Positions 8,444-64,000 of a stretch of 64,000 nt of DNA are shown in pieces. Position 1 is the first letter of the stretch. The number at the start of each line of letters is the position of its first letter. The position numbers and the translations under genes were made by a program. The notes under the pieces are model-generated. The model did not search any database. It had not been told where the DNA came from and saw nothing but the letters and a program-made list of their open reading frames with translations. Source of the stretch: Arthonia radiata (taxonomy: Eukaryota > Ascomycota > Arthoniomycetes > Arthoniales > Arthoniaceae); contig PSQN01000005.1 of assembly GCA_002989075.1 (NCBI GenBank), forward strand, positions 620,001-684,000. The letters are read 5' to 3'.

Positions 8444-9824
8444 CAAAACTCGTTCAAGTCATGAGCCGCGGCGGCGACATAGTCAAGCACGCATTAGCAG
8501 AAGGGAAAGAAGTAAGAGAAAGATGGTGCCGGTGTGATTTGCTGTACGGATACCGTAAGCTGGTGGGAGGATTGTGATGTTGTGCGAGCTCGAGAGACTT
8601 GCACCCAGAAGACTCGATCGACGGCGGGGAGAAGGAGTACTTCTTCGCAATTTGTGTGAAGTAAAATACCAATGCCGCGACGTGAGCGGCGTGCGCGTTG
8701 CGGTTGTCGTCGGAGCTGGGCAAGTCGTTGAAGGCGCAAGATCGCACCAGCAGTGCCACGTTGTTGCTTGGCAGCCCACCTCGAGCCTCATAACTCCCAT
8801 CCGCCCACATAATTCTGTATTGCCAACAAGAACCGGAGGCGTGTGCCTGTCAAGGCTCAGTATCTGGTGCCTGTACCTGCTAGCCTGGTTGCTTTGTGTG
8901 TTTTCCAATCTCAAACGGTACCGGCGACGGGCTTCTTAGGTGACAGAGGCTGTGCGCATGAGATTGCCTTTGTATCACGGCGACGAGCATCACGCATGCG
9001 CAAGTCTACATAATACCTTATGTAGCATGCGCACTTTATGTGCTTACAACATCCTCTCAACCGTGCAGGCCCGTTTTCAGATGCTTTGTGAGATCCTGGG
9101 CAAGTTAGACATCGTGTCCGATGTTCCATTTGTGCACAGGCTTCCAAACCCGAGGGTACTCGCACGCAGCAGCGAAAAATTTGTAGAGACCCGAATGCAC
9201 CAGGTCTCGAGTTGACTTCGTGAGCCTGGCCAACTATCCAAACACATAGTGCTGTGTGTGGGACAAGGTCCTGAGCTCAAGAGTTGCCGTGAATAGCGAG
9301 TAGCGAGTAGCGCCATAGTCCTCCAAAGTTGCGAAAGAAGAACACACAGCCAGACTTATATAGATATCACGCGAGTCACTGGGGGTGGGTTCGAGGTATT
9401 AGTGAACACTCACCTAGTCAACCAGCGGGCATAGCTGCTGAGCTTTTCGGCTCTAGAGAAGCTGCTTCAGCTTTGAGCCGCAGCGCGCCCGGTGAGCCTC
9501 GCTCTGCAACGAACACTTTCCTCCATGTCAATGACTAACGAGTGTAGAACGGCGTCTGGCATGTGTCTCTGATGGTGATCGGCCAGTTGATGAGCGGTTG
9601 CCTGCGGAAGTCTGAGTCTTATCACAGCAGGCAGACCCTTCATAGTGAAACAAAGGAGCGTTAGCAATGGCGTGAGATGCAAAGGATGTCAAAATTCGGA
9701 CAGCTCCAAACAGAAGTTGGCCCAGCTTCGTCGTGATGGATGCTGAAGGATAATGGTGTGAGATGTACGGCAAGGTAATGTCTGGTCGCCAAGATATGCA
9801 CAGACCACTGCCATGAGAGATATT
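8444..9824. other. intergenic, 5' side of the CTK1-like kinase gene
   Basis: A 1.4-kb stretch with several unsupported ORFs in both strands, none with recognisable similarity or matching splice signals. It holds a hairpin at 8997-9033 (listed separately) and otherwise presumably the kinase promoter. The AT-richer 9500-9800 part shows nothing further. Confidence 0.5.
8997..9033. repeat. short hairpin (inverted repeat, 4-nt loop)
   Basis: Arms tgcgca..ctacataa and ttatgtag..tgcgca face each other around the loop tacc, with a small asymmetry in the middle. The 14-mer taccttatgtagca in this hairpin recurs at 9866-9879 inside the inverted-repeat element, hinting at a fragment of the same repeat family. 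Confidence 0.5.
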
Positions 9825-10170
9825 ATCCCGTCCCCTGGCCGGTCGCCCCCAGCCTTACGGATTATTACCTTATGTAGCAGTTCTGTAGAGAACGATACAG
9901 ACGTAATCAACTTTTGTGTCCCCGCCAGCACTATCACTAATTATTCCTACTCACCGGCGGCCACCAATTGCTCCTACCAGCAAAGTTGTTTAACGCAGAT
10001 ATTAGTTTTGCAATATAAGAAACTACGTAACGGTCTCTTTGACCTCTTCTAGCGCTGCTGTTGTCTTACAATGACTAGTTGAAAGCCTGGTGGGTAATGT
10101 GCGGTGACACAAAAAAGCGCCTACCTTGCCAATCTTGTAGGGCTGGGGGCGACCGGCCAGGGGACGGGAT
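9825..10170. mobile_element. 346-bp MITE-like element with 34-bp terminal inverted repeats
   Basis: The left end 9825-9858 (atcccgtcccctggccggtc..) and right end 10137-10170 are reverse complements with one mismatch over 34 bp. The ends are GC-rich while the interior is AT-richer and non-coding. A clear target-site duplication is not visible: flanks read gatatt and ggcatt, sharing only att. This is the structure of a miniature inverted-repeat transposable element or foldback element. It sits 118 bp upstream of the dephospho-CoA kinase start and so may lie in its promoter. Its ends do not match the inverted repeats of the transposon at 57.7-63.5 kb. Confidence 0.6.
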
Positions 10171-35392: not shown

Positions 35393-36988
35393 ATGTCCAA
35401 TGTTGACTTCTCCAATACTGCAAGCTACCCGCAGATACAAGTGACAGATCGCACAAGTCTTTCCGTTGGTGATACTGTGCAGTTGGCCCTGGCTGAGAAT
35501 TTCGGAGCCAACCAACGATTTCTTCGTGTCATACAGATATTACACAATCGCATTGATGGTGGGGTCAACCTCAAGGGATTCCTGCTCATTCGAGTCAAGC
35601 ATTCTGGACTCCTATTGCAGGGGCGCGTGAATGAGGTGTACATAGCCGTCGATCACGTTAGAGAAGATGTTACAGAGCTGTGGCCAGACCCAAGCATTGC
35701 CATTCGAGACGTGGATGCCTTCACAGAGGTTCAATTCGACGATCAAGACCAGCCAATCAAGCGAGAGCTCAGGTTCACCAATCGCAGATATCCGGAAGAC
35801 AATATTTGCACAGAGATCGACTTCGATGACAAAAACGTGCAGCAAATCAGGTTCATCCAGCAACACGAGATGTTGACTTGCCGCTGGATGATGATTGAGC
35901 ACAGGCAAGCAAAGAGGGTCAAGACTGATAGGCTTCCAAGTTCCGCTCGAATCAAGATGCTTCAGACCAAGGACATCTTCGCGCTTACAGGCATGGCCGC
36001 TAATATAGAGGACTTCACGCTATTTGAGACCTACCGAGGATCTCTGCCTACTGAGGATATGCTCACTTGTGGTGATGGATTTTGCGGTGCTGGAGGCTTC
36101 AGTCAGGGGGCCGCAAAAGCCGGTCTTGTTATCAGGCTCGCCTTTGACATGGATGGGAAGCCGTGCGGGACGTACAAACTAAATCAACCAGGGTCAACCG
36201 TATACAAACTTGACGTGTTTCGCTTCATCAGTCTCGTGGCGGAGCATCCCGGACAGTTTCGAGTGGACGTACTCCACATCTCACCTCCATGCCAGGGATG
36301 GTCTCGTCAAAATCCGTTTGCTGGCCATCGCGACCCAAATTCGAGGCAAGGGAAACTCGATGAAGCCAGACAAGCCGCCTCGTTTGTCACCGCCGCGCTG
36401 ATTAGAAAATGCAAGCCCAGAATCTTGAGCATGGAGCAAACTAACTGTATTCTCGACCCCGACAAGGTCGACTTCTTTCGCGGTATTATTGCTGATATAA
36501 CTGGCGAAGACTTCAGCGTCGCTTGGCAAATCCGAAATTGCGCTGGGGATGGCCATCCTCATGCTCGCTGGCGCCTCTGCTTGTTGGCTGCGTGTCCTGG
36601 AGAAGTCCTGCCGCCATTTGCGCCTGCAACTCATGGCCCTGGTACGCAAACGCAATATACAACAATCGGTGATCGCATCAGCCTGATAGACGAGACATTA
36701 TCTGACCACGATCCACACTATGAGCGTCTAAAGCCTGAGCGAGCGATCAAACCAGATCAGATGCTCAGAAACATTATTGATTGCTACGGCACTAAAGACA
36801 CTCTTTGGGATCCCGACCCTGCTAAGAATGGGAGAGAGTTCACTGTTCGCGAAAATGCTGTGATGATGGGACTACCACCTCATTTCCAGTTCCATGCTTT
36901 GCTTTTCAAAGGAGATAAAAAGCAGCAGATTGGAAACATGGTCGTCCCTGATACTGCAGAAAAACTTGATGAAGATTGTTGTTGCTAG
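35393..36988 (+). CDS. rid: RID/Masc1-type C5 cytosine DNA methyltransferase
   Basis: Putative DNA methyltransferase of the fungal family needed for RIP (Neurospora RID) or premeiotic methylation (Ascobolus Masc1). Intronless, ATG 35393, 531 aa. Residues about 20-95 look BAH-like (SVGDTVQLALAENFGANQRF..LQGRVNEVYIAVD). Methyltransferase motif I DGFCGAGGFSQG (228-239), motif IV SPPCQGWS with catalytic Cys300, motif VI EQT (348-350) where most C5 enzymes have ENV, motif VIII GHPHARWRL and motif X IGNMVVP (about 513-519). EQT is, to my knowledge, the RID/Masc1 mark. The reading frame ends DEDCCC; in the +1 frame from 36969 the sequence continues with a plausible family tail (MKIVVASLRKSGK, stop 37008-37010). 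A one-base insertion may therefore have altered the last residues. Catalytic motifs are intact. Confidence 0.88.
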   Translation: MSNVDFSNTASYPQIQVTDRTSLSVGDTVQLALAENFGANQRFLRVIQILHNRIDGGVNLKGFLLIRVKHSGLLLQGRVNEVYIAVDHVREDVTELWPDPSIAIRDVDAFTEVQFDDQDQPIKRELRFTNRRYPEDNICTEIDFDDKNVQQIRFIQQHEMLTCRWMMIEHRQAKRVKTDRLPSSARIKMLQTKDIFALTGMAANIEDFTLFETYRGSLPTEDMLTCGDGFCGAGGFSQGAAKAGLVIRLAFDMDGKPCGTYKLNQPGSTVYKLDVFRFISLVAEHPGQFRVDVLHISPPCQGWSRQNPFAGHRDPNSRQGKLDEARQAASFVTAALIRKCKPRILSMEQTNCILDPDKVDFFRGIIADITGEDFSVAWQIRNCAGDGHPHARWRLCLLAACPGEVLPPFAPATHGPGTQTQYTTIGDRISLIDETLSDHDPHYERLKPERAIKPDQMLRNIIDCYGTKDTLWDPDPAKNGREFTVRENAVMMGLPPHFQFHALLFKGDKKQQIGNMVVPDTAEKLDEDCCC

Positions 36989-55378: not shown

Positions 55379-55873
55379 TATAGGGAAGAAGAAGAATACT
55401 ACTATAAAGAGTAGAAAGACGAGACTAGCTTAGAACTAGTATAATACTTAGGCTTGGTATAGGTACAATACTTAGTAACAAAGAGAAGCTGTTATTATAT
55501 TATCTATCTTATTAGCTAAAATCCTTTAAAGGGATCTTAGCTTATATATCTAAGTTTAGCGGCCTATATAGGACCTACTAGATATCTATTCTTTTTAATA
55601 GAGGCTAGATAACCTGTAACTTACTATACAAGATAGTAATTCTGTTTATCTAAAACTATTAGTCTTAGTCTATTCTATGTTGTCTTAGACTACGGGCCAG
55701 CTATCTAGGACGAGTTGTATAATGCTCCTTTTTGTCCTAGATCCGGGCTACTAGGCCCAATCTTTAAGGTAAAAGGGTTGTTCTATTCTAGACCGAGATA
55801 GCCGGTAGAACCTATCCGATACTCCGGGTCCCTAGAGGTTCCGGCTAACCAGCTAGTTAGTTGATTTCTAACA
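55379..55873 (-). repeat. copia 5' LTR
   Basis: 495 bp, upstream LTR in the element orientation. Its outer edge abuts gypsy-related sequence at 55874. Its inner edge reads cctttt..aggttataagcctggg on the element strand, where a primer-binding site should be; the tRNA is not identifiable by eye. Confidence 0.88.
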
Positions 55874-57664
55874 ATAATTCTATACAACGATAGAGACTTA
55901 GTTAATTACTAAGATACCTAAGAAATATAATTAGTTCCGATATCTATTTAAGAAAGCTAAGCTAAACTTAGCTCTTTTAGAATATAAACTATAGGATTAT
56001 ATAATATCTTTATAGAAAGGTAAAACACTAATATTTAGTTTAATATACTCTCTATTAGAAGTAGAAAATTAAGCGCTCTACAACTATCTCAATAAAAACC
56101 TTAAGAAAGACTTTATTTAGAAATTAATATTACTAGCCGGATACCTAATACTCTTTGTACTAAAGAAGAATAGTAAATTACGACTCTACGTACATTATAG
56201 ACAACTTAATAGAGTAACTATTAAAAACCGGTACCCCTTACTATATATTAATAAAATAACAGACCAATTATATAATATATAATAGTTTACTAAGTTTAAT
56301 CTATAAGGAGTCTATAACCTTATCTATATAAAGAAAGGTAAAGAATAGAAAACAGCCTTCTATACTAGATACAGACTTTTTAAGTATTATATTATATTCT
56401 TTAGGCTTACAAACGTACTAGTATTATTTTAGAAACTAATTAACAATATACTTAGTAATTACCTAGATATATTTATAACTACTTATCTAGGTAATATCCT
56501 AGTATATAGCTGTATACTAGAAGAATATAAGAAATATATTAAGAAGATATTAGAAAGATTAGTACGTATCGATTTACAAATTAATATTAAGAAAACCTAG
56601 TTTTACTAACGATCCATTAAATTTCTTAGATTTAAAATTACCGAGTATAGTCTCTAAATAAAAGATTCAAAGATCTAGTTTATTTTAATTTAGCCTATAC
56701 TAAAGAATATAAAACAATTATAATAGTTTCTTGGTTTTACTAACTATTATAGATAATAGATATCTAACTTTAGCTAAATTATAGTACTACTATCTTAATA
56801 AATAATATAATCGATAGAATTCTTCTAGACGTAAAAAGAATAATTAGTATTTAAAGAGCTTAAGGTAGCTTTTAAGATCGAACCTATACTAGCTATATTT
56901 AATCCTAAGCTATTAATTATTATAGAAATAGACGCGTTAGACTATATAATTAGAGTATATATAAGTTAAAATAATAAGGAAAGAAAGCTTAGATTAGTAG
57001 CTTTCTACTTAAGAAAAAAATTATCTATAGAACAAAACTACAATATTTATAATAAAGAGCTTTTAGCTATTATAGCAGTATTTAAAATATAGCGAGCTTA
57101 CTTAGAGAGAGCAAACTATATAATTATAGTATATATAGACTATAAGAATCTAACTTACTTTATAATAATAAAGAAACTTAACTATAGATAAGTTAGATAG
57201 TTAGAAACTATAGCTCTATACAACTTTATTATTATCTATAAGAAGGGTTCTAAGAACAATAGAGCCGACGCTCTAAGCTAACGTTTAGATTACCTTAATA
57301 ATAAGCAATATATCGAGCATATAATATTCTAAGAATATAATAACGAGATTAGATATAATTAATTAGCTATAATAACTAAGTTTGTTATCGAACTAAATAG
57401 CCGAATCCTAGATATCCTAAACAACCCTAAGACCTACTAGGAAAACGAGAAACAATACCTAAGATTAATAAAAAATAATAAAGACTATTATAAGTTCTAA
57501 GGTAAAATCTACGTTCTAAGGAATCTAATCTAATATATTATTAGTAACTTCTATAATAACCTAACGAAAGGATATAAGAGTATCGATAACACTATTAAAA
57601 AAATTACGAGAATGTACTATATCCCAAGAATCTAACACTACGTTAAGGATTATATCTAAGAATA
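55874..57664 (+). mobile_element. RIP-degraded Ty3/gypsy remnant, RT and RNase H part
   Basis: Plus-strand translation with stops reads as a chromovirus-like pol. [50 protein letters not shown] followed by stop-KTAFYTRY (Trp lost to stop). RNase H: ETDALDYIIRVYIS, NYNIYNKELLAIIAVFKI and KKGSKNNRADALS. The integrase zinc-binding region begins at about 57600 (MYYIPRIQHYVKDYI with Q lost) and is cut at 57664. Extremely AT-rich. The 5' part of the element is missing, presumably at the copia boundary. Confidence 0.88.
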
Positions 57665-57697
57665 CTGTCCATCCCGGTGTCGCGGGACACCCTGCGT
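57665..57697 (+). repeat. left terminal inverted repeat of the Fot1-like transposon
   Basis: Begins ctgtccatcccgg and continues tcgcgggacaccctgcgt. It pairs with 63516-63548. Weaker similarity between the ends continues for about 20 bp beyond (gacgc, atttct). Confidence 0.92.
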
Positions 57698-58545
57698 CGC
57701 GAGACGCTATCGCGTATTTCTAGAAATATCTCTCCACACACTCATTTTTGGCTCTTTGTCTTAGTAAAAGCACTTTTCTTTCTCCCTTCATGCGACACTT
57801 TTACATACTTTTGCGCAAAATAGCCCATCCTAAGCTGATCCCTCCGCTATCAAAATGTGCAGCTATGTTCTAGCTGAATCTTTATCGTATCATAGAAAAC
57901 ATTTATTAGATTATAATGATCTGAAACACACATCTACGAATAGCTCGACTGAATAACTTCGATCAACAATACACGCCGAAGCAAATATCGACTTTGCGAG
58001 TGTTACTGCAAGAATAAGAAGGTAGATCTACCACTACCTGCATAAAGCCAAGCTCGGATCGTGCGGGGAGTTGTTAGCTTACTCCTACTCAGCTCGGCCG
58101 AGAGCTCGGCTCATCCACTCCAGACACAAGTAAGCTACGGTCGGGTCGGCGAGGTCGGAAGCCAGAACACTCTTGTTGGTTCAGCAAAGCAAGCTTTCCT
58201 CACACCCTGAGAAGTAGAATAGACAGCAATCCCAGGCTTCAAGTAAATGCATACAAGTATGACACTGGCATCGTGTCAATTCTTCAGAGTAAGATGGCCA
58301 AAAGTCGGTTTCCGCGATGCTACACCAGGCCTTTGGCAGTGTTGTGAATACTCCTCCTCAGCTGCGGTGGCAAACGCTTAGACGTCGATCAGGAGGCTGT
58401 ACGCCGCCGATCAGGTGGCTGTACGGTGGTGATCAAGAGGCAGTGCTCGAGGCAGTGCTCAGGATGGTAGGATACATAAGCGGTGCTCCTGTACGCAGTA
58501 GCTAGCAAGGTCGGTAGTAGTACTCAATCGACAGTATCCTCTGCA
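57698..58545. other. left non-coding arm of the transposon
   Basis: About 850 bp between the inverted repeat and the NLR stop codon. It contains short direct repeats (ggctgtacg.. near 58390-58420, aggcagtgctc twice near 58439-58460). No gene recognised; the frame at 58317-58505 lacks similarity. Confidence 0.5.
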
Positions 58546-60717
58546 CTACGCACAACAGGCAGCTCTGAACTGTCGTTGACACTCAAGTGTGTGCGGATGC
58601 TCTATCCCTAGAACTACGACGAGTCCGGTTGAGGCGCGCTCATACAGCAAGATGGTTTCATCGCGTCGACCGAGACGGTTAAGTAACTCTGCACGACACC
58701 ATACACTAGTCAGCGTGTCAGGATGCTCCCTCCCAAGCACCTTCTCCCTTCCCTCCATCGCTCGCCGATTCATCTCCTCCGCCGCCTCGTATTGTCCCTG
58801 GTCTTGTAGCACTAATGCGAGGTTGTTTACGCTTGTTAGCGTGTTGGGATGCTCCTTCCCAAGCACCTTCTCGCTTCCCTCCATCGCTCGCCGATTCATC
58901 TCCTCCGCCGCCTCGTATTGTCCCTGGTCTTGTAGCACTGATGCGAGGTTGTTTACGCTTGTTAGCGTGTCGGGATGCTCCTTCCCAAGCACCTTCTCCC
59001 TTCCCTCCATCGCTCGCCGATTCATCTCCTCCGCCGCCTCGTATTTTCCCTGCCTTCGTAATACTCCTGCTAGGTCGGTCAGACTCCACAACCATCCCCT
59101 CTCATCTATTTCTTTGAGACCTTCCCGCTCTACCAGTTCAAACGACCGGAGCTCATATTCAGCATGATATTGTCCTGTGTACCTGAGGAAGTCTCCCAAT
59201 GATCTAATCAGGTCGAGACTACGCCCTGGTATCTGTGCTGATATCTTATGCCATTCCCGTAGTCGCGCTACGCTCGACAATATATGCGGTGTGATTCGAC
59301 TTCTCCATGCTGGATCACGCTGCCTCTGCTGCACTGCCCACTCCAAGAATGCGAGACTACTCGAGCTGTACTCTCCTTGCTTTTTCTCTTCTAGCCGGTC
59401 AAAGCCCCATGCGTGTACTAACTTGTGCATAGAGTATCCGTCCTGCTCGTTCTTCAATTGGATCAAAGAGTATTTTGATAATGCTTCCAGTGCCTCGTCG
59501 AGCACCGCCTCAAATGGCGCGTCGGCCGACAGAAACGTTTTCCACGCGTCTCCCTGACTCTCGCTAGGCGCAACAAATGAATCAGGCTGGGGATGGAACA
59601 GCTCGAGGAAGATGTCCTCCGGATCCAAGAAAGCGAAGAAGCTAAGCAGCCTTACTGCCATAGGACACTGCTTCGCTATTGCATCGAGCGAAATTTCCCA
59701 CGTGGTCAACACACTCTCCCCATACTGGTGAATCTGTTGTTTCGCTTTCCGACTCAACAACCTTCTCCTTCCTTGCCGGTACTCCAGCAGATATGTTTGG
59801 ATGTTCGACCATATGCGTGGAGTCGCCGCGACGTATGCTCCCGCTAGCGTAACAGCCAATGCTAGGTAATCGAGCTCTGCAACGATGCGATCCGCCTCTT
59901 CCGGCACAGCCTCCGTAGCGTTGCGCATTTTGCTGCATCGCACGAACATGTCCACCGCTTCCGCAGGCGCCAGCTTGCCGACCTCCACCGCTTCGAGCTC
60001 TGTCATGTCCACCGCTGTCCGGCTCCGCGTCGTGACGATGATTTCAATTCCGGGCACATCGAGAAGATACCGTCGAAGATCGATAAAGTAAGGGTCGCTC
60101 TCGTCATCGAGGCTGTCCGCATTGTCGAACACGAATAGCCATCTGCCGGCGCGACCATGAAAGTATGACTTCACCGCAGTGATAACGCGATCAATATCGA
60201 GCTGGACCGAAGCTGCGTCCTGGCCGCCGCCAAACAGCAGGCCATATATCTGCAGGTAGTCGCGCTCTACCGACTCTCGCAGTCTTGTATCTACCCAGAA
60301 TACTGCCAGATAGTCCTCGCGATGCGTGTGAATGTAATTCAGAGCAAGCTGCGACTTTCCCGCTCCGCCCAAGCCGACTAACACGAGGATGACGTTTTGG
60401 GAGATCTCAGTAGCACGCATACTGTGCAGCCGCTCTTCCACCTGCTTCTGCAGCTCTGGCCGTACCACATAGGTGGCGACTGGCTTTAGCGATCTATACG
60501 AGTACGTGCCGGTGTAGCCTGGCCGCGTCTGCGCTCGCTCGACGTAGTGAATGGTATCTGCGATGAATTGGTTGCCAGCTCCGCTCTGGTTGTAGTTCTT
60601 CTGTGCTCCGTAGCCCGCATTGACGTTCAGCGACCCCGCATCGGAATGCGAATAATGCGCGGGCCGGCAGCCGTCCGCCGGTCGTAATGTCGGCGCGACA
60701 TTCGTGTCGTCAGACAT
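58546..60717 (-). CDS. NLR-like STAND protein: amyloid-like N-terminal motif, NB-ARC, TPR repeats
   Basis: Single exon, ATG 60717, 723 aa. Residues 1-60 are disordered and carry NVNAGYGAQKNYNQSG (31-46). NB-ARC domain about 80-400: Walker A GLGGAGKSQ (115-123), Walker B WLFVFDNAD (193-201), the TTRSR sensor (IIVTTRSRTAV) and a winged-helix part with MHKLVHAWG. The C-terminus holds kinesin-light-chain-type TPRs with three near-identical 42-residue units (EAAEEMNRRAMEG..VLGKEHP). Fungal NLRs of this design detect non-self and trigger cell death through a partner. The partner gene starts 498 bp away in the opposite direction. No frameshift or premature stop; codon use is normal, unlike the surrounding repeat DNA. 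Confidence 0.92.
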   Translation of the reverse strand: MSDDTNVAPTLRPADGCRPAHYSHSDAGSLNVNAGYGAQKNYNQSGAGNQFIADTIHYVERAQTRPGYTGTYSYRSLKPVATYVVRPELQKQVEERLHSMRATEISQNVILVLVGLGGAGKSQLALNYIHTHREDYLAVFWVDTRLRESVERDYLQIYGLLFGGGQDAASVQLDIDRVITAVKSYFHGRAGRWLFVFDNADSLDDESDPYFIDLRRYLLDVPGIEIIVTTRSRTAVDMTELEAVEVGKLAPAEAVDMFVRCSKMRNATEAVPEEADRIVAELDYLALAVTLAGAYVAATPRIWSNIQTYLLEYRQGRRRLLSRKAKQQIHQYGESVLTTWEISLDAIAKQCPMAVRLLSFFAFLDPEDIFLELFHPQPDSFVAPSESQGDAWKTFLSADAPFEAVLDEALEALSKYSLIQLKNEQDGYSMHKLVHAWGFDRLEEKKQGEYSSSSLAFLEWAVQQRQRDPAWRSRITPHILSSVARLREWHKISAQIPGRSLDLIRSLGDFLRYTGQYHAEYELRSFELVEREGLKEIDERGWLWSLTDLAGVLRRQGKYEAAEEMNRRAMEGREKVLGKEHPDTLTSVNNLASVLQDQGQYEAAEEMNRRAMEGSEKVLGKEHPNTLTSVNNLALVLQDQGQYEAAEEMNRRAMEGREKVLGREHPDTLTSVWCRAELLNRLGRRDETILLYERASTGLVVVLGIEHPHTLECQRQFRAACCA
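58715..59092 (-). repeat. three tandem 126-bp units encoding TPRs
   Basis: Units 58715-58840, 58841-58966 and 58967-59092 are nearly identical at the DNA level, differing at a few positions, with the third diverging at its end. Each encodes one 42-residue TPR. Confidence 0.9.
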
Positions 60718-61215
60718 GTGGAGAGTAAGAACGTCGTATCTCGTTTTCAGTAGGATAACAATTCAGATTGCGCTGTAGGAGCGGCTTAGGCTTGGTTTGC
60801 AGACAGGGAGCTTGTGGGAAAAGCGAGGACAGAGTGGCCGCATTATGCCACGCAGCGGCTGAGCTGGACGTGCAGCTCAAGGCTGGAAGGAGCGTGGCTG
60901 GGTCACACCATGCAGCAGCTGAGCTTGGCAAGACCGGTCATTGGGCTTGCCCGCATGAGCTTTTATCTTCGGTGCAGAGGTCCAATGAAACACTCACACG
61001 TTTTGTCGCGCAGTAGGAATGGAGTGGGGATCTAGAAAGCATGCTCCTCTACATAAATAGCTCGACAGCCTTGCGCTGCTGCTCCGTCGTGGTAATCGAG
61101 CTCAAAGCCATTTGCTCGCCTTCGATATCTTTCCTGAAACAGGTACTCGTGCACACCAAGTCTGCCCCAGAAAAAACACGCTAAAGCCGCATACTACAGT
61201 TCTAGCTCATGTAGC
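60718..61215. other. divergent promoter between NLR and SesA-like genes
   Basis: 498 bp shared by the head-to-head pair. It contains related copies of gcagctgagct..ggc (near 60850 and 60912). ORFs here are unsupported. Confidence 0.5.
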
Positions 61216-61833
61216 ATGGCGGATCCACTGAGCATCATCACTTCGATTATCACACTGTTAGATGCTACCAAAAAAATCTACGACAAGGTCCAAGATACAA
61301 CACATCTCCCGCAGGCGTTCGCCCAGATATACTCGCGAATCGGCTTAGCCACTCAGACACTACGCGAAGTCCACCAGAAATATCAGACGAACAGCGAAGA
61401 AGAGGCGAAGATTGCGGGCACACTGCAGGGATGCCAAAGAGACGCAGAAGACTTGAAGAACATGTACGAGATTACCTGCACGGCAGCGAACTCAGAGTGG
61501 TTTCGACGCTACAAAGGATACCTCTCGAACATGGTGCATGACCGCAAGGGTAAGGTAGAGGACAAATGGAGAAGCCTACTGGAGGGCCTCGAAGTGCTGC
61601 GAGGGTATCACTTGTTTAAGACCTTATCGACCGCGAAGGAGATTGCGGCTGCAATGAAGGAAGCGCAGGAGATCGAAAGCTCACTGCCTGACGATGAGGC
61701 ATCGTTCAATCACTATGGGCCAGGGCCTATGAATGTTAACACTGGCGTGGGTACACAGCGTAATTACAATCAGAGCGGTGGCTCGAATAATAAACAATAT
61801 AACGCAGAAACTCAGCACTTCGGCAAGAATTAA
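61216..61833 (+). CDS. SesA-like N-terminal-domain protein with C-terminal amyloid-like motif
   Basis: Single exon, ATG 61216, 205 aa. Residues 1-150 match the NACHT/NLR-associated SesA-type helical domain: MADPLSIITSIITLLDATKK, the IYSRIGLATQTLREV helix, CQRDAEDLKNMYE and WRSLLEGLEVLRGY. There is no nucleotide-binding domain. The C-terminus carries NVNTGVGTQRNYNQSG (173-188), 12 of 16 residues identical to the motif at the N-terminus of the divergent NLR, then NNKQYNAETQHFG. In known fungal pairs the NLR motif templates the same fold in the effector, switching on a helical cell-death or enzyme domain. SesA is linked to the sigma element of Nectria. Effector activity is inferred, not shown. 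Confidence 0.85.
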   Translation: MADPLSIITSIITLLDATKKIYDKVQDTTHLPQAFAQIYSRIGLATQTLREVHQKYQTNSEEEAKIAGTLQGCQRDAEDLKNMYEITCTAANSEWFRRYKGYLSNMVHDRKGKVEDKWRSLLEGLEVLRGYHLFKTLSTAKEIAAAMKEAQEIESSLPDDEASFNHYGPGPMNVNTGVGTQRNYNQSGGSNNKQYNAETQHFGKN

Positions 61834-61898
61834 TTGGAGGTCTACTCAATGCGGAAATGGATGCAGTGTCGTCCAGATCAGATACCCTGTATCTGAGT

Positions 61899-63152
61899 CT
61901 AATTTGGCAGATTCTTCAATACCTTATCCGGGTTAAATAGGAACAGTCTGCTTTTACTCCATCCTGCAAGAACGTTCCGCTTGGTGAATGCTCTTTCCCT
62001 GGCGGGGCTATATAGAGAGGTGAAATGCTCTTTACCAATAGTATTTACATCTCCGCGCTCAAGTCGCTCTACACTGTCGCGGTAGGCTGCTTTCAATGAC
62101 GCAAATACGGCAATGTCACATGGCTGAAGCTTGTCTGATGTATGCGAAGGGAGGCGGCAAAGAATGATGTTGTTAGCGAAGCAAAACTCCAAAATTTCAA
62201 GCGATTCGTGTGCGCCAAAACCGTCGCAGATCAGCACCCGTGGTTTGTGGCCAGCTCTGTCTTTGGTCTGGGGATCGAATACACACTTCAGCCGTTCAAA
62301 GCTGATCTTCGAATTAGTATATCCAGATTCGGAGCAGGCGTAATGCCATTCAGGTGTAGAAAACGTGGTCCAGTCGCTTCGATAAGTCGTAGCTAGCCAG
62401 ATGATCATGAGTTTCAAGTACCTACCGTCAGCGCTAATACACTCAATCGCAGTAACTATCGTTCGCTTGACACGCGCGCCTCTGTAATTTCGCATATCGT
62501 CCTTTCCCATAAGAACTTTCACGGAACCAAGCATGGAAAGCATGACCCTAGTCTCATCAGTGTTATAAACATTCTTAGGCAGAACATCTAGATCTTCGAG
62601 CACCTTTCTGATCACCTCGTACCAATGTTTAATCTTTGGTAAAGTATTCTTCTCGTGACGAGTCCAATCAAGTGCCGTGACTCTCTTCGCTTTGAGTTCG
62701 GGGTGACGATTCTCGAAGGCCTTGGCCCAGTTCTTACCAGGGGTCTTAGAGGGTCTGTCTTGCGCAGACCGGTGACGGGTAGCACTAAAGGCAATGAAAG
62801 GCACATGCTTGATTCGCACAGGTTGTCCGAGCGCAGACCTTTGTAGCAAGAACTCTACTACCGCCTTCTCTTCAGCCGGCGTAAGGTACTGCTGGCTCTG
62901 GCCTTTGGCTTCGATCGACTGGCGACCATGCGCACGGTAATGGAGGGTGGAGCGCGGAACTCCGCTGTTATCTGCAAAGACGCGGTAAGATCTACGTACG
63001 CCGGAGGGCATACTATGTGCGAGCGCTCGACTAGCTGAATCCATGTCGACGACAGCATGTCGAAGGCGGAGACGTGTGAGAACGGTAGAATTGGCGAGCG
63101 CGGCTACAGATTCTTCTAGAAACACATCGGTTTGAACTAAATATAGCTTCAT
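61899..63152 (-). CDS. Fot1/pogo-type DDE transposase
   Basis: ATG 63152, 417 aa (a GTG codon precedes it in frame). Psq-like helix-turn-helix near residues 40-75 (GVRRSYRVFADNSGVPRSTL), CENP-B-type second DNA-binding part (LTPAEEKAVVEFLLQRSALGQP and WAKAFENRHPELKAKR), then the catalytic domain: first Asp in VYNTDETRV, second in LICDGFGAHESL and third in LQPCDIAVFASLKAAY, after the CRLPSHTSDK box. The WxxxxxxLFNPDKVL ending is typical. No stops or frameshifts, so it may still be active. It is convergent with the SesA-like gene (65 bp apart) and probably acts on the inverted repeats at both ends. Confidence 0.92.
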   Translation of the reverse strand: MKLYLVQTDVFLEESVAALANSTVLTRLRLRHAVVDMDSASRALAHSMPSGVRRSYRVFADNSGVPRSTLHYRAHGRQSIEAKGQSQQYLTPAEEKAVVEFLLQRSALGQPVRIKHVPFIAFSATRHRSAQDRPSKTPGKNWAKAFENRHPELKAKRVTALDWTRHEKNTLPKIKHWYEVIRKVLEDLDVLPKNVYNTDETRVMLSMLGSVKVLMGKDDMRNYRGARVKRTIVTAIECISADGRYLKLMIIWLATTYRSDWTTFSTPEWHYACSESGYTNSKISFERLKCVFDPQTKDRAGHKPRVLICDGFGAHESLEILEFCFANNIILCRLPSHTSDKLQPCDIAVFASLKAAYRDSVERLERGDVNTIGKEHFTSLYSPARERAFTKRNVLAGWSKSRLFLFNPDKVLKNLPN

Positions 63153-63515
63153 CACCAGAACGAATCTCCAATTGCGACATCCGGTGACAAAGCTGTGGCT
63201 TGGCTTGAGATGAGGCGCTCGGCCGAGCTAGCCGGGGCTAAGCTACTTCTTTCTCCGCCTTTCTGGGTTTCGCTTCCTAGAAAAGCTGGGTGATCAGCCC
63301 TGTTTATCCCTGTAATGGCGCTCACAAGGTCTGCATTAGCTTCAAAAAGAGCGTGCACTTTGACGGCAGGGGGATAAGCTCGAGAAGTGCCGTTTTGTAT
63401 AAAAACACGCGGAAATGGCGTATAAAGATAAAAAGAGAAAGGCGTTTACTAAGGCGAATAGTCGAAAATGGGTGTGTAATGAGTTATTGTAAGAAATGTA
63501 GGATTGCGTCCCGGC
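63153..63515. other. right non-coding arm of the transposon
   Basis: 363 bp between transposase start and right inverted repeat, likely the transposase promoter. No ORF of note. Confidence 0.5.
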
Positions 63516-63548
63516 ACGCAGGGTGTCCCGCGATGCCGGGATGGACAT
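63516..63548 (-). repeat. right terminal inverted repeat of the Fot1-like transposon
   Basis: Reverse complement of 57665-57697 with three mismatches (outermost base and two central bases). Followed directly by ta at 63549-63550. Confidence 0.92.
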
Positions 63549-64000
63549 TACAACATATATATAAGAACTAAGTATCTAAGATATTTACTATACAGTAAAC
63601 TATAGCTACTAAAAATACCTAAGAGACTATAGTATATAGTATTACTAGACTATATTACTAAGTTACTAATTTCTAAGAATTTACTTATAGAAGTAGCTTA
63701 CAACGCTATTCTAGTTATATACAATAAACTAATAAAGTACGTATACCTTATACCTTATAGAGAAGCTAGTAATTTAGAACAATTAGTATATATTTCTTTA
63801 GATTATCTTAGCTAACTATAGTTAACTACAAAGAACTGTCTCTAACAGAGACTAAAAATTTATCTTACGGTTTTAGATATCCCTAATATAATAGCTAGGG
63901 ACAAAATAAAAAATGTCTACGTTGTTCTATTTGCAAACAGACAGACAAACAGAAAGAATAAACTAGACCCTAGAATAGTATCTACAAGCGTACATTAATT
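63549..64000 (+). mobile_element. Ty3/gypsy remnant, integrase part (continues beyond the window)
   Basis: Downstream half of the gypsy pol interrupted at 57664. The plus strand reads SLDYITKLL-like, NAILVIYNKLIKYVYLIPYRE and, near 63930, NRQTNRKNK, the remnants of the integrase core (..LTKY..YF.PY and DGQTER box). Stops and AT enrichment are the same as on the left side. Confidence 0.85.

What the first reader, a model, noticed from the sequence alone, without database searches (positions are those of the whole stretch)
57665..63548. A DNA transposon carrying a complete NLR/effector pair as cargo
One Fot1/pogo-like element, bounded by 33-bp inverted repeats and TA, encloses a transposase plus a head-to-head NB-ARC/TPR gene and SesA-like gene. 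Non-self recognition genes packaged inside a small cut-and-paste transposon would give a direct route for their spread and copy-number change between genomes. I know of NLR genes in large Starship elements, but not of such a pair inside a 6-kb pogo-type element.
Basis: partly seen in the sequence, partly recalled or inferred. Interest (0 to 1): 0.9.

Follow-up and report, generated by a model that had tools for sequence, protein, structure and literature searches.

The report
Fungal transposons carrying immune-receptor genes
A small cut-and-paste transposon in a fungal genome carries an immune-type receptor gene and its likely cell-death partner, and three more copies of related transposons in the same genome carry other receptors, two of them near-identical at different sites, so self/non-self recognition genes here appear to travel inside small transposons.

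Summary
57665-63548 is one Fot1/pogo-type element: TA flanks, 33-bp inverted ends (30/33 identical), a DDE_1 transposase gene, and a head-to-head NB-ARC/TPR receptor plus SesA effector sharing a sigma-like motif. It sits in a degraded high-copy repeat; of 29 other copies tested, 28 show the uninterrupted sequence, 24 with the single TA. It inserted as one unit.

The genome added more. The only other transposase matches above 27% identity (three, 58-66%) also lie in TA-flanked inverted-repeat elements with NB-ARC/TPR receptors: one hydrolase-type (7.7 kb) and one PNP-type in two 6.87-kb copies, 99.5% identical end to end at unrelated sites. So 4 of 4 copies carry receptors, of three kinds. Five of six distant pogo-like loci examined span only 1.8-2.1 kb.

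No copy looks autonomous: the window transposase lost its C-terminal region; the PNP copies share eight stops and a lost catalytic Asp, so they probably moved with transposase made elsewhere.

Closest precedents: ToxTA, Starships, Pyrenophora transduplication. New variant of a known kind. Cell-death function and trans-mobilisation are inferred; no other strain or species could be examined for cargo.

The parts
57663..57664 (.). TA target-site duplication, left
   Evidence: present once in 24 of 28 clean empty copies; 2-bp overlap of flank matches
57665..57697 (+). left terminal inverted repeat (33 bp, 30/33 identical to the right one)
57663..57857 (+). left long arm, 71% complementary to 63356-63550
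58546..60717 (-). NLR gene, 723 aa: sigma-like motif, NB-ARC, TPR
60547..60654 (-). N-terminal sigma-like motif of the NLR (aa 22-57; Pfam NACHT_sigma 14.4 bits, below its cut-off of 27.6)
59770..60444 (-). NB-ARC domain
58712..59052 (-). 126-bp tandem repeats (2.7 copies, 96% matches) coding 42-aa TPR units
60718..61215 (.). 498-bp gap between the head-to-head genes (possible shared promoter, inferred)
61216..61833 (+). SesA effector gene, 205 aa
61699..61821 (+). C-terminal sigma-like motif of SesA (aa 162-202), 51% identical to the NLR N-terminus
61899..63152 (-). Fot1/pogo-type DDE transposase, 417 aa; Asp199, Asp310, Asp346 kept; C-terminal region of its relatives (about 165-200 residues in P0010 and P0009) missing
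63356..63550 (-). right long arm
63516..63548 (-). right terminal inverted repeat
63549..63550 (.). TA target-site duplication, right

Best explanation
57665-63548 is a composite cut-and-paste transposon of the Fot1/pogo branch of Tc1/mariner. A receptor/effector pair (sigma-like-motif NB-ARC/TPR receptor and SesA effector) lies between the transposase gene and the left inverted repeat, and the C-terminal part of the transposase gene is missing there, which suggests loss during capture (inferred). The whole unit inserted at a TA in a degraded repeat copy (shown). The four copies of this transposase type found in the genome all sit in elements with NLR cargo: three elements, three NLR kinds (shown). 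Copies B and C show that such a unit has moved with its cargo (shown). Because their transposases share eight stops and a lost catalytic Asp, the last movement was probably driven in trans by a working transposase elsewhere acting on the inverted repeats (inferred). The cargo most likely works as proposed for fungal sigma pairs: ligand binding to the TPR repeats oligomerises the receptor, its N-terminal motif nucleates an amyloid fold that templates the SesA C-terminus, and SesA triggers a cell-death or incompatibility response (inferred from published models, not tested).
For: Inverted ends, TA, and only two matches of the end pattern in the genome. Empty sites: 28 of 29 other copies clean, 24 of these with TA and 4 with TG or CA; 13 pairs of flank matches overlap by exactly 2 bp, counted by eye from the tables. 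Element A C11:241140-248854 and copies B C11:226091-232960 and C C9:1576079-1582948 share the first 12 bases at all six ends and have TA on each side; TANCGTCCATCCCT occurs 7 times exactly in the genome and 6 are the ends of A, B, C (up to one mismatch gives 31 hits against 21 for the reversed control). B versus C: 37 differences in 6870 bp, unrelated flanks. Cargo: A NB-ARC-TPR with a hydrolase-like N-terminus, B/C PNP_UDP-NB-ARC-TPR. Control: of six low-identity pogo-like loci examined, five have inverted repeats spanning 1.8-2.1 kb, one showed none. Shared stops in B and C, and Asn for the third catalytic Asp. C-terminal transposase profile: found in A, B and C, not in the window element. 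Motif shared by NLR and SesA. Only 8 NB-ARC matches in the genome, so receptors in four 6-8 kb elements are unlikely to be chance neighbours.
Against: The window element is single copy, so cargo gain after insertion is not formally excluded for it. Its transposase is truncated and diverged. Differences between strains could not be tested. NACHT_sigma is below the Pfam cut-off for the NLR and P0006 and gave no match for the window SesA. The DNA-binding domain hit is below its cut-off (19.0 against 22.2 bits). Pfam found no hydrolase domain in A's own open stretches; that label rests on alignment with P0136. No structure prediction was possible. Shared stops in B and C could come from gene conversion. 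Four of the five control elements have the same end sequence and are probably one family, so they are not independent controls.
Confidence: 0.86

Rival explanations
1. The transposon inserted empty and the NLR pair was gained afterwards in situ, so the pair never moved as cargo here.
For: Only one copy of the window element in the genome; the transposase C-terminal region is missing exactly where the cargo begins.
Against: Sister copies B and C moved with their NLR. The flanks have GC 0.26 and TpA/ApT 1.54 and 1.82, while all parts of the element, cargo and ends alike, have GC 0.48-0.55, as expected for one unit.
Confidence: 0.08
2. NLR carriage is an old, conserved property of this transposase family: the elements are NLR vehicles in many ascomycetes and cargo is exchanged within the family. 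(This extends the main reading rather than excluding it.)
For: 4 of 4 copies here carry an NLR; 1337 proteins match the transposase at E 0.001 or better; the three local transposases sit in separate supported parts of the tree among proteins from elsewhere.
Against: The cargo state of the relatives is unknown; differing cargo orientation and NLR kinds equally fit independent captures.
Confidence: 0.35
3. Inverted repeats and NLR genes are near each other only because pogo elements tend to insert around NLR genes in repeat-rich DNA.
For: One further NB-ARC match (C9:1572167-1572652) lies about 3.4 kb from copy C.
Against: Repeats flank the genes on both sides with TA; B and C match from end to end and their flanks do not; the window unit is absent from 28 of 29 other repeat copies tested.
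Confidence: 0.03

Closest known systems
ToxTA (formerly ToxhAT) of cereal-infecting Dothideomycetes (PMC12506042 and PMC6737239, passages read)
   Same: 14-kb cargo transposon with inverted repeats; PMC12506042 reports TA duplications and an empty site and places it near Tc1/mariner as non-autonomous; PMC6737239 describes a Patatin-TPR gene of the NLR family inside it.
   Different: Eight genes and 74-bp repeats; the transposase that moves it is not established (PMC6737239 found no duplications). Here 6-8 kb elements each hold a pogo-type transposase gene and one NLR or NLR/effector pair.
Starship giant elements (PMC12134995, PMC12506042, PMC9594970, passages read)
   Same: Mobile elements of Pezizomycotina that carry NLR genes as accessory cargo.
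   Different: Tyrosine-recombinase captain and very large size; here DDE transposase, TA sites, 6-8 kb.
Transduplicating DNA transposons of Pyrenophora tritici-repentis (PMC3538342, passages read)
   Same: A non-transposon ORF between the inverted repeats of a Tc1/mariner element, multiplied in the genome.
   Different: Cargo there is an ORF with coiled-coil domains (Tc1/mariner) or a histone H3-like gene (hAT); 'NACHT' and 'tetratricopeptide' do not occur in the text.
sesA/sesB/het-eN locus and other sigma-motif STAND/effector pairs (PMC3321046, PMC5485727, passages read)
   Same: SesA-domain effector next to a STAND receptor, with a shared G- and N/Q-rich motif at the receptor N-terminus and effector C-terminus.
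   Different: Described as genomic gene clusters; the passages read mention no transposon ends around them.
Fot1/pogo-type elements (DDE_1, Tc5-type DNA-binding domain)
   Same: Transposase type, TA target, inverted repeats.
   Different: Five distant members examined in this genome are 1.8-2.1 kb, too short for such cargo.

Membership tests
Fot1/pogo (Tc1/mariner) transposon | DDE_1 transposase domain | tested here: met
   1.5e-25, 90.2 bits, cut-off 22
Fot1/pogo (Tc1/mariner) transposon | CENPB/Tc5-type DNA-binding domain | tested here: inconclusive
   HTH_Tnp_Tc5 0.0014, 19.0 bits, below cut-off 22.2
Fot1/pogo (Tc1/mariner) transposon | three catalytic acidic residues | tested here: met
   Asp199, Asp310, Asp346 in the window copy (which Asp are catalytic is recalled family knowledge); the third is Asn in B and C
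Fot1/pogo (Tc1/mariner) transposon | terminal inverted repeats and TA duplication | tested here: met
Fot1/pogo (Tc1/mariner) transposon | full-length transposase (needed for autonomy, not for family membership) | tested here: not met
   19 changes at positions conserved in at least 90% of relatives and C-terminal region missing; C-terminal profile finds A, B, C but not the window element
sigma-motif NLR/effector pair | NB-ARC or NACHT receptor with repeat domain next to a SesA/SesB-type gene | tested here: met
sigma-motif NLR/effector pair | shared motif at receptor N-terminus and effector C-terminus | tested here: met
   51% over aa 162-202 of SesA, E 8.6e-5; 50% over 38 positions
sigma-motif NLR/effector pair | match to the Pfam sigma model | tested here: inconclusive
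   NLR: NACHT_sigma 0.042, 14.4 bits, cut-off 27.6; window SesA: no match
sigma-motif NLR/effector pair | amyloid templating and cell death | not testable with these tools
   needs experiment
Starship | tyrosine-recombinase captain (DUF3435) | tested here: not met
   no such domain in the three main ORFs of the element; element is 5.9 kb

The most novel reading that the evidence does not exclude
There is a widespread family of pogo-type transposons specialised as NLR vehicles in ascomycetes: each lineage carries a receptor module (sigma pair, hydrolase-NLR, PNP-NLR), spreads it with transposase acting in trans, and so supplies fungal genomes with ready-made, transferable non-self recognition modules. 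The receptor cargo may be kept because it helps the element, for instance against loss or against competing elements.
Probability: 0.33. Interest if true: 0.92.

Novelty: new variant of a known kind. Interest (0 to 1): 0.8.

Why it matters
Fungal NLR repertoires vary widely, and repeat-induced mutation should conflict with NLR duplication (PMC12258605, passages). NLRs packed in small TA-targeting transposons give a concrete, testable route for gain, loss, copy change and possibly transfer between species of receptor or receptor/effector modules. In this genome four NB-ARC receptor genes lie in such elements (window, A, B, C), while the NB-ARC family search lists eight matches in all, two of them the window and A; B and C are not listed, and other receptors may be missed too. 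It also offers a frame for ToxTA, a TA-flanked cargo transposon with an NLR-family gene.

Tried and rejected
Donor copies of the cargo: DNA searches of the own genome with the window element and with the cargo of A and B found the elements themselves, fragments at 66-83% identity, and a 227-bp stretch at C7:35218 that is 93% like 58337-58563; tblastn of the window NLR and of 120 NLR relatives found no NLR coding in that locus.

Remnant of the lost transposase C-terminus in the window element: tblastn of 120 relatives gave, in the part of the output that I could see (it was cut in the middle), only weak matches outside the main one, E 0.012 or worse, among them repeated ones (E 0.28 or worse) of relatives' residues near 517-545 to about 58138-58230 on the opposite strand. 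A profile of the C-terminal region from 96 relatives finds A (5e-59) and B and C (1.2e-53, 1.5e-53) but only E 7.7 in the window element, so I reject a remnant.

Related elements in other organisms: none in viral contigs; the assembly has no relatives in the genome collection; the protein collection gives no gene neighbourhood. Equal contig length and source (994,354 bases, ena) suggest that the NLR relative P0129 and the SesA relative P0006 lie on one contig; that is an inference.

A seventh exact end sequence at C12:748492, 78% like the first 160 bp of B, could not be read.

Literature: eight searches combining NLR, NB-ARC or NOD-like terms with pogo, Fot1, mariner, cargo, capture or Starship terms listed no paper that by title or start of abstract reports an NLR inside a pogo/Fot1 element. 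The library holds open-licence papers only. I opened eight papers and read passages, none whole.

Single local origin of the cargo: the three local transposases do not group together to the exclusion of proteins from elsewhere, so I do not claim one.
Full report
What is there. The window lies at C11:620001-684000 of a 33.5-Mb, 16-contig genome. Some of the best named relatives of the cargo come from Dothideomycetes, such as Elasticomyces and Cryoendolithus, and one SesA relative from Zymoseptoria tritici (its class recalled); mobile cargo is a poor guide to the host, and the species is not known to me. At 57665-63548 lies a 5884-bp unit with inverted ends: 30 of 33 terminal positions agree and weaker homology (71%) extends to about 195 nt. 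Each end is flanked by TA. A 32-base end pattern with up to three mismatches occurs in the genome only at these two places.

Genes. On the minus strand 58546-60717 codes for 723 aa with NB-ARC (5.7e-6) and TPR repeats; on the plus strand 61216-61833 codes for 205 aa with a SesA domain (6.8e-21); on the minus strand 61899-63152 codes for 417 aa with DDE_1 (1.5e-25). The receptor's repeats include 126-bp tandem units, 2.7 copies at 96% matches. The receptor N-terminus and the SesA C-terminus share a motif: 51% over aa 162-202 of SesA, E 8.6e-5. Pfam's sigma model touches the receptor at 22-57, below its cut-off, and does not match the window SesA. Of the eight SesA relatives, P0006 and P0008 end with the same motif and the other six do not (by eye). 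The window SesA looks like a recombinant: its domain is 70% identical to P0001 and 27% to P0006, its tail 48% to P0001 and 69% to P0006. The closest receptor, P0129 (74%), and P0006 come from records of equal contig length and source, so probably one locus. This agrees with the published remark that such extensions are more alike within a cluster than between orthologues (PMC3321046, passage).

Insertion as a unit. The flanks are GC 0.26 with RIP-like dinucleotide bias; the parts of the element are GC 0.48-0.55. Left and right flanks each match a high-copy repeat (368 and 363 candidates, 40 scored and listed in each search). In 13 pairs of listed matches, counted by eye, left and right match meet with exactly 2 bp overlap, the TA. 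Thirty left-flank loci were cut out: one is the occupied site; of the other 29, 28 show the joined flanks with no insertion and one (L067) has a gap across the junction. At the site itself 24 of these 28 have TA, three TG and one CA. The first run of this test looked at one strand only and aligned 14 of the 30 loci, 13 of them spanning the junction. So the unit between the two TAs arrived in a pre-existing repeat copy.

The rest of the family in this genome. The transposase search has 28 matches. Four are at 58-100% identity: the window copy and three more; all others are at 27% or less. The three lie in elements of the same build. A: C11:241140-248854, 7715 bp. B: C11:226091-232960 and C: C9:1576079-1582948, 6870 bp each. 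All six ends begin ACGTCCATCCCT and have TA outside. The pattern TANCGTCCATCCCT occurs seven times exactly in the genome; six are the ends of A, B and C, the seventh is C12:748492, 78% like the first 160 bp of B and not read; the 24 further hits with one mismatch are at the level of the control (31 in all against 21). B and C differ at 37 positions in 6870 and their similarity stops at the ends: the same cargo at two unrelated TA sites.

Their cargo. A carries, on the transposase strand, NB-ARC (4.7e-7) and TPR in a gene that reads in four open stretches; Pfam finds nothing in its first two stretches, but they align with P0136, which has Abhydrolase_6, NB-ARC and TPR (60% over residues 88-132, 28% over 165-565), so I call it a hydrolase-type NLR. 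B and C carry, on the strand opposite to the transposase, PNP_UDP_1 (1.8e-9) followed by NB-ARC (7.4e-10) and TPR, with a 53-base intron with GT and AG ends inside the P-loop codons, predicted and not supported by RNA (both read from copy B). Whether the other gaps between open stretches are introns or damage I did not settle. Receptor kind and orientation differ among the three elements. The NB-ARC family search lists only eight matches genome-wide, among them the window and A; B and C were missed, presumably because the intron splits the P-loop. Of six low-identity pogo-like loci examined as controls, out of 24 such matches, five have inverted repeats spanning 1.8-2.1 kb and one (L037) showed no such repeats; four of the five share an end sequence and are probably one family.

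Can they still move? The window transposase keeps three Asp residues at the expected catalytic places, but differs at 19 of the positions conserved in at least 90% of 120 relatives (median of the relatives 6, maximum 19) and lacks the C-terminal part with 25 more such positions. A profile of that part, from 96 of the 97 relatives of 500 aa or more, finds A, B and C but not the window element. The B and C transposases share all eight stops, six of them where P0009 has Trp, and both have Asn for the third catalytic Asp. The simplest reading is that this transposase was dead before the two copies separated, and that they moved with transposase supplied in trans. A is nearly full length (P0009 5-586 aligned at 55%) but has stops.

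Origin. In a tree of 118 family transposases (three local, 115 of the 120 listed relatives, five dropped as shorter than 430 aa) and two controls, the window groups with P0009 and P0010 (support 97), B branches elsewhere in a 35-row group with them (97), and A falls in another 34-row group (99), next to P0060 (88) (quick method, A has a long branch). The three local elements are therefore separate lineages. Either NLR carriage is old in the family, or NLRs were captured several times; the cargo state of the relatives is unknown.

Known relatives. Starships carry NLRs but use a tyrosine recombinase. ToxTA is the closest precedent: a TA-flanked, probably non-autonomous Tc1/mariner-like element (PMC12506042) with a Patatin-TPR NLR-family gene (PMC6737239). 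Transduplication in Pyrenophora includes a Tc1/mariner element with a captured ORF (PMC3538342). The sigma pair is a known kind (PMC3321046, PMC5485727). None of the passages read describes NLRs in Fot1/pogo elements, and the listings show no such title or abstract. Hence: known parts, a new combination, and one that recurs in this genome.

Noticed in passing
window 35393-36988 (+): 531-aa ORF with a C-5 cytosine DNA methylase domain (PF00145, 1.8e-25); a candidate for a RID- or DIM-2-like gene (names recalled), of interest because the surroundings look RIP-mutated.
   Followed up: partly
window 55665-57662 and 63551-64000: The element sits in a degraded high-copy repeat, by eye a Ty3-type retroelement near its integrase region (recalled motifs, not tested).
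   Followed up: partly
G000:C12:748492-748653: A further copy of the family's left end (78% to B over 160 bp); the only transposase match on C12 is over 200 kb away. Could be a solo end, a non-autonomous element or another cargo carrier.
   Followed up: no
G000:C9:1572167-1572652: Another NB-ARC match about 3.4 kb from copy C, outside its ends.
   Followed up: no
window 9820-10143: Near-perfect inverted repeat (up to 32 of 33) with a short spacer, a possible hairpin or small element.
   Followed up: no
C7:35218-35445 (L002): 227 bp, 93% like 58337-58563 at and past the NLR 3' end, with no NLR coding found in the locus; several weaker matches to part of it elsewhere suggest a small repeat inside the cargo region.
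   Followed up: partly
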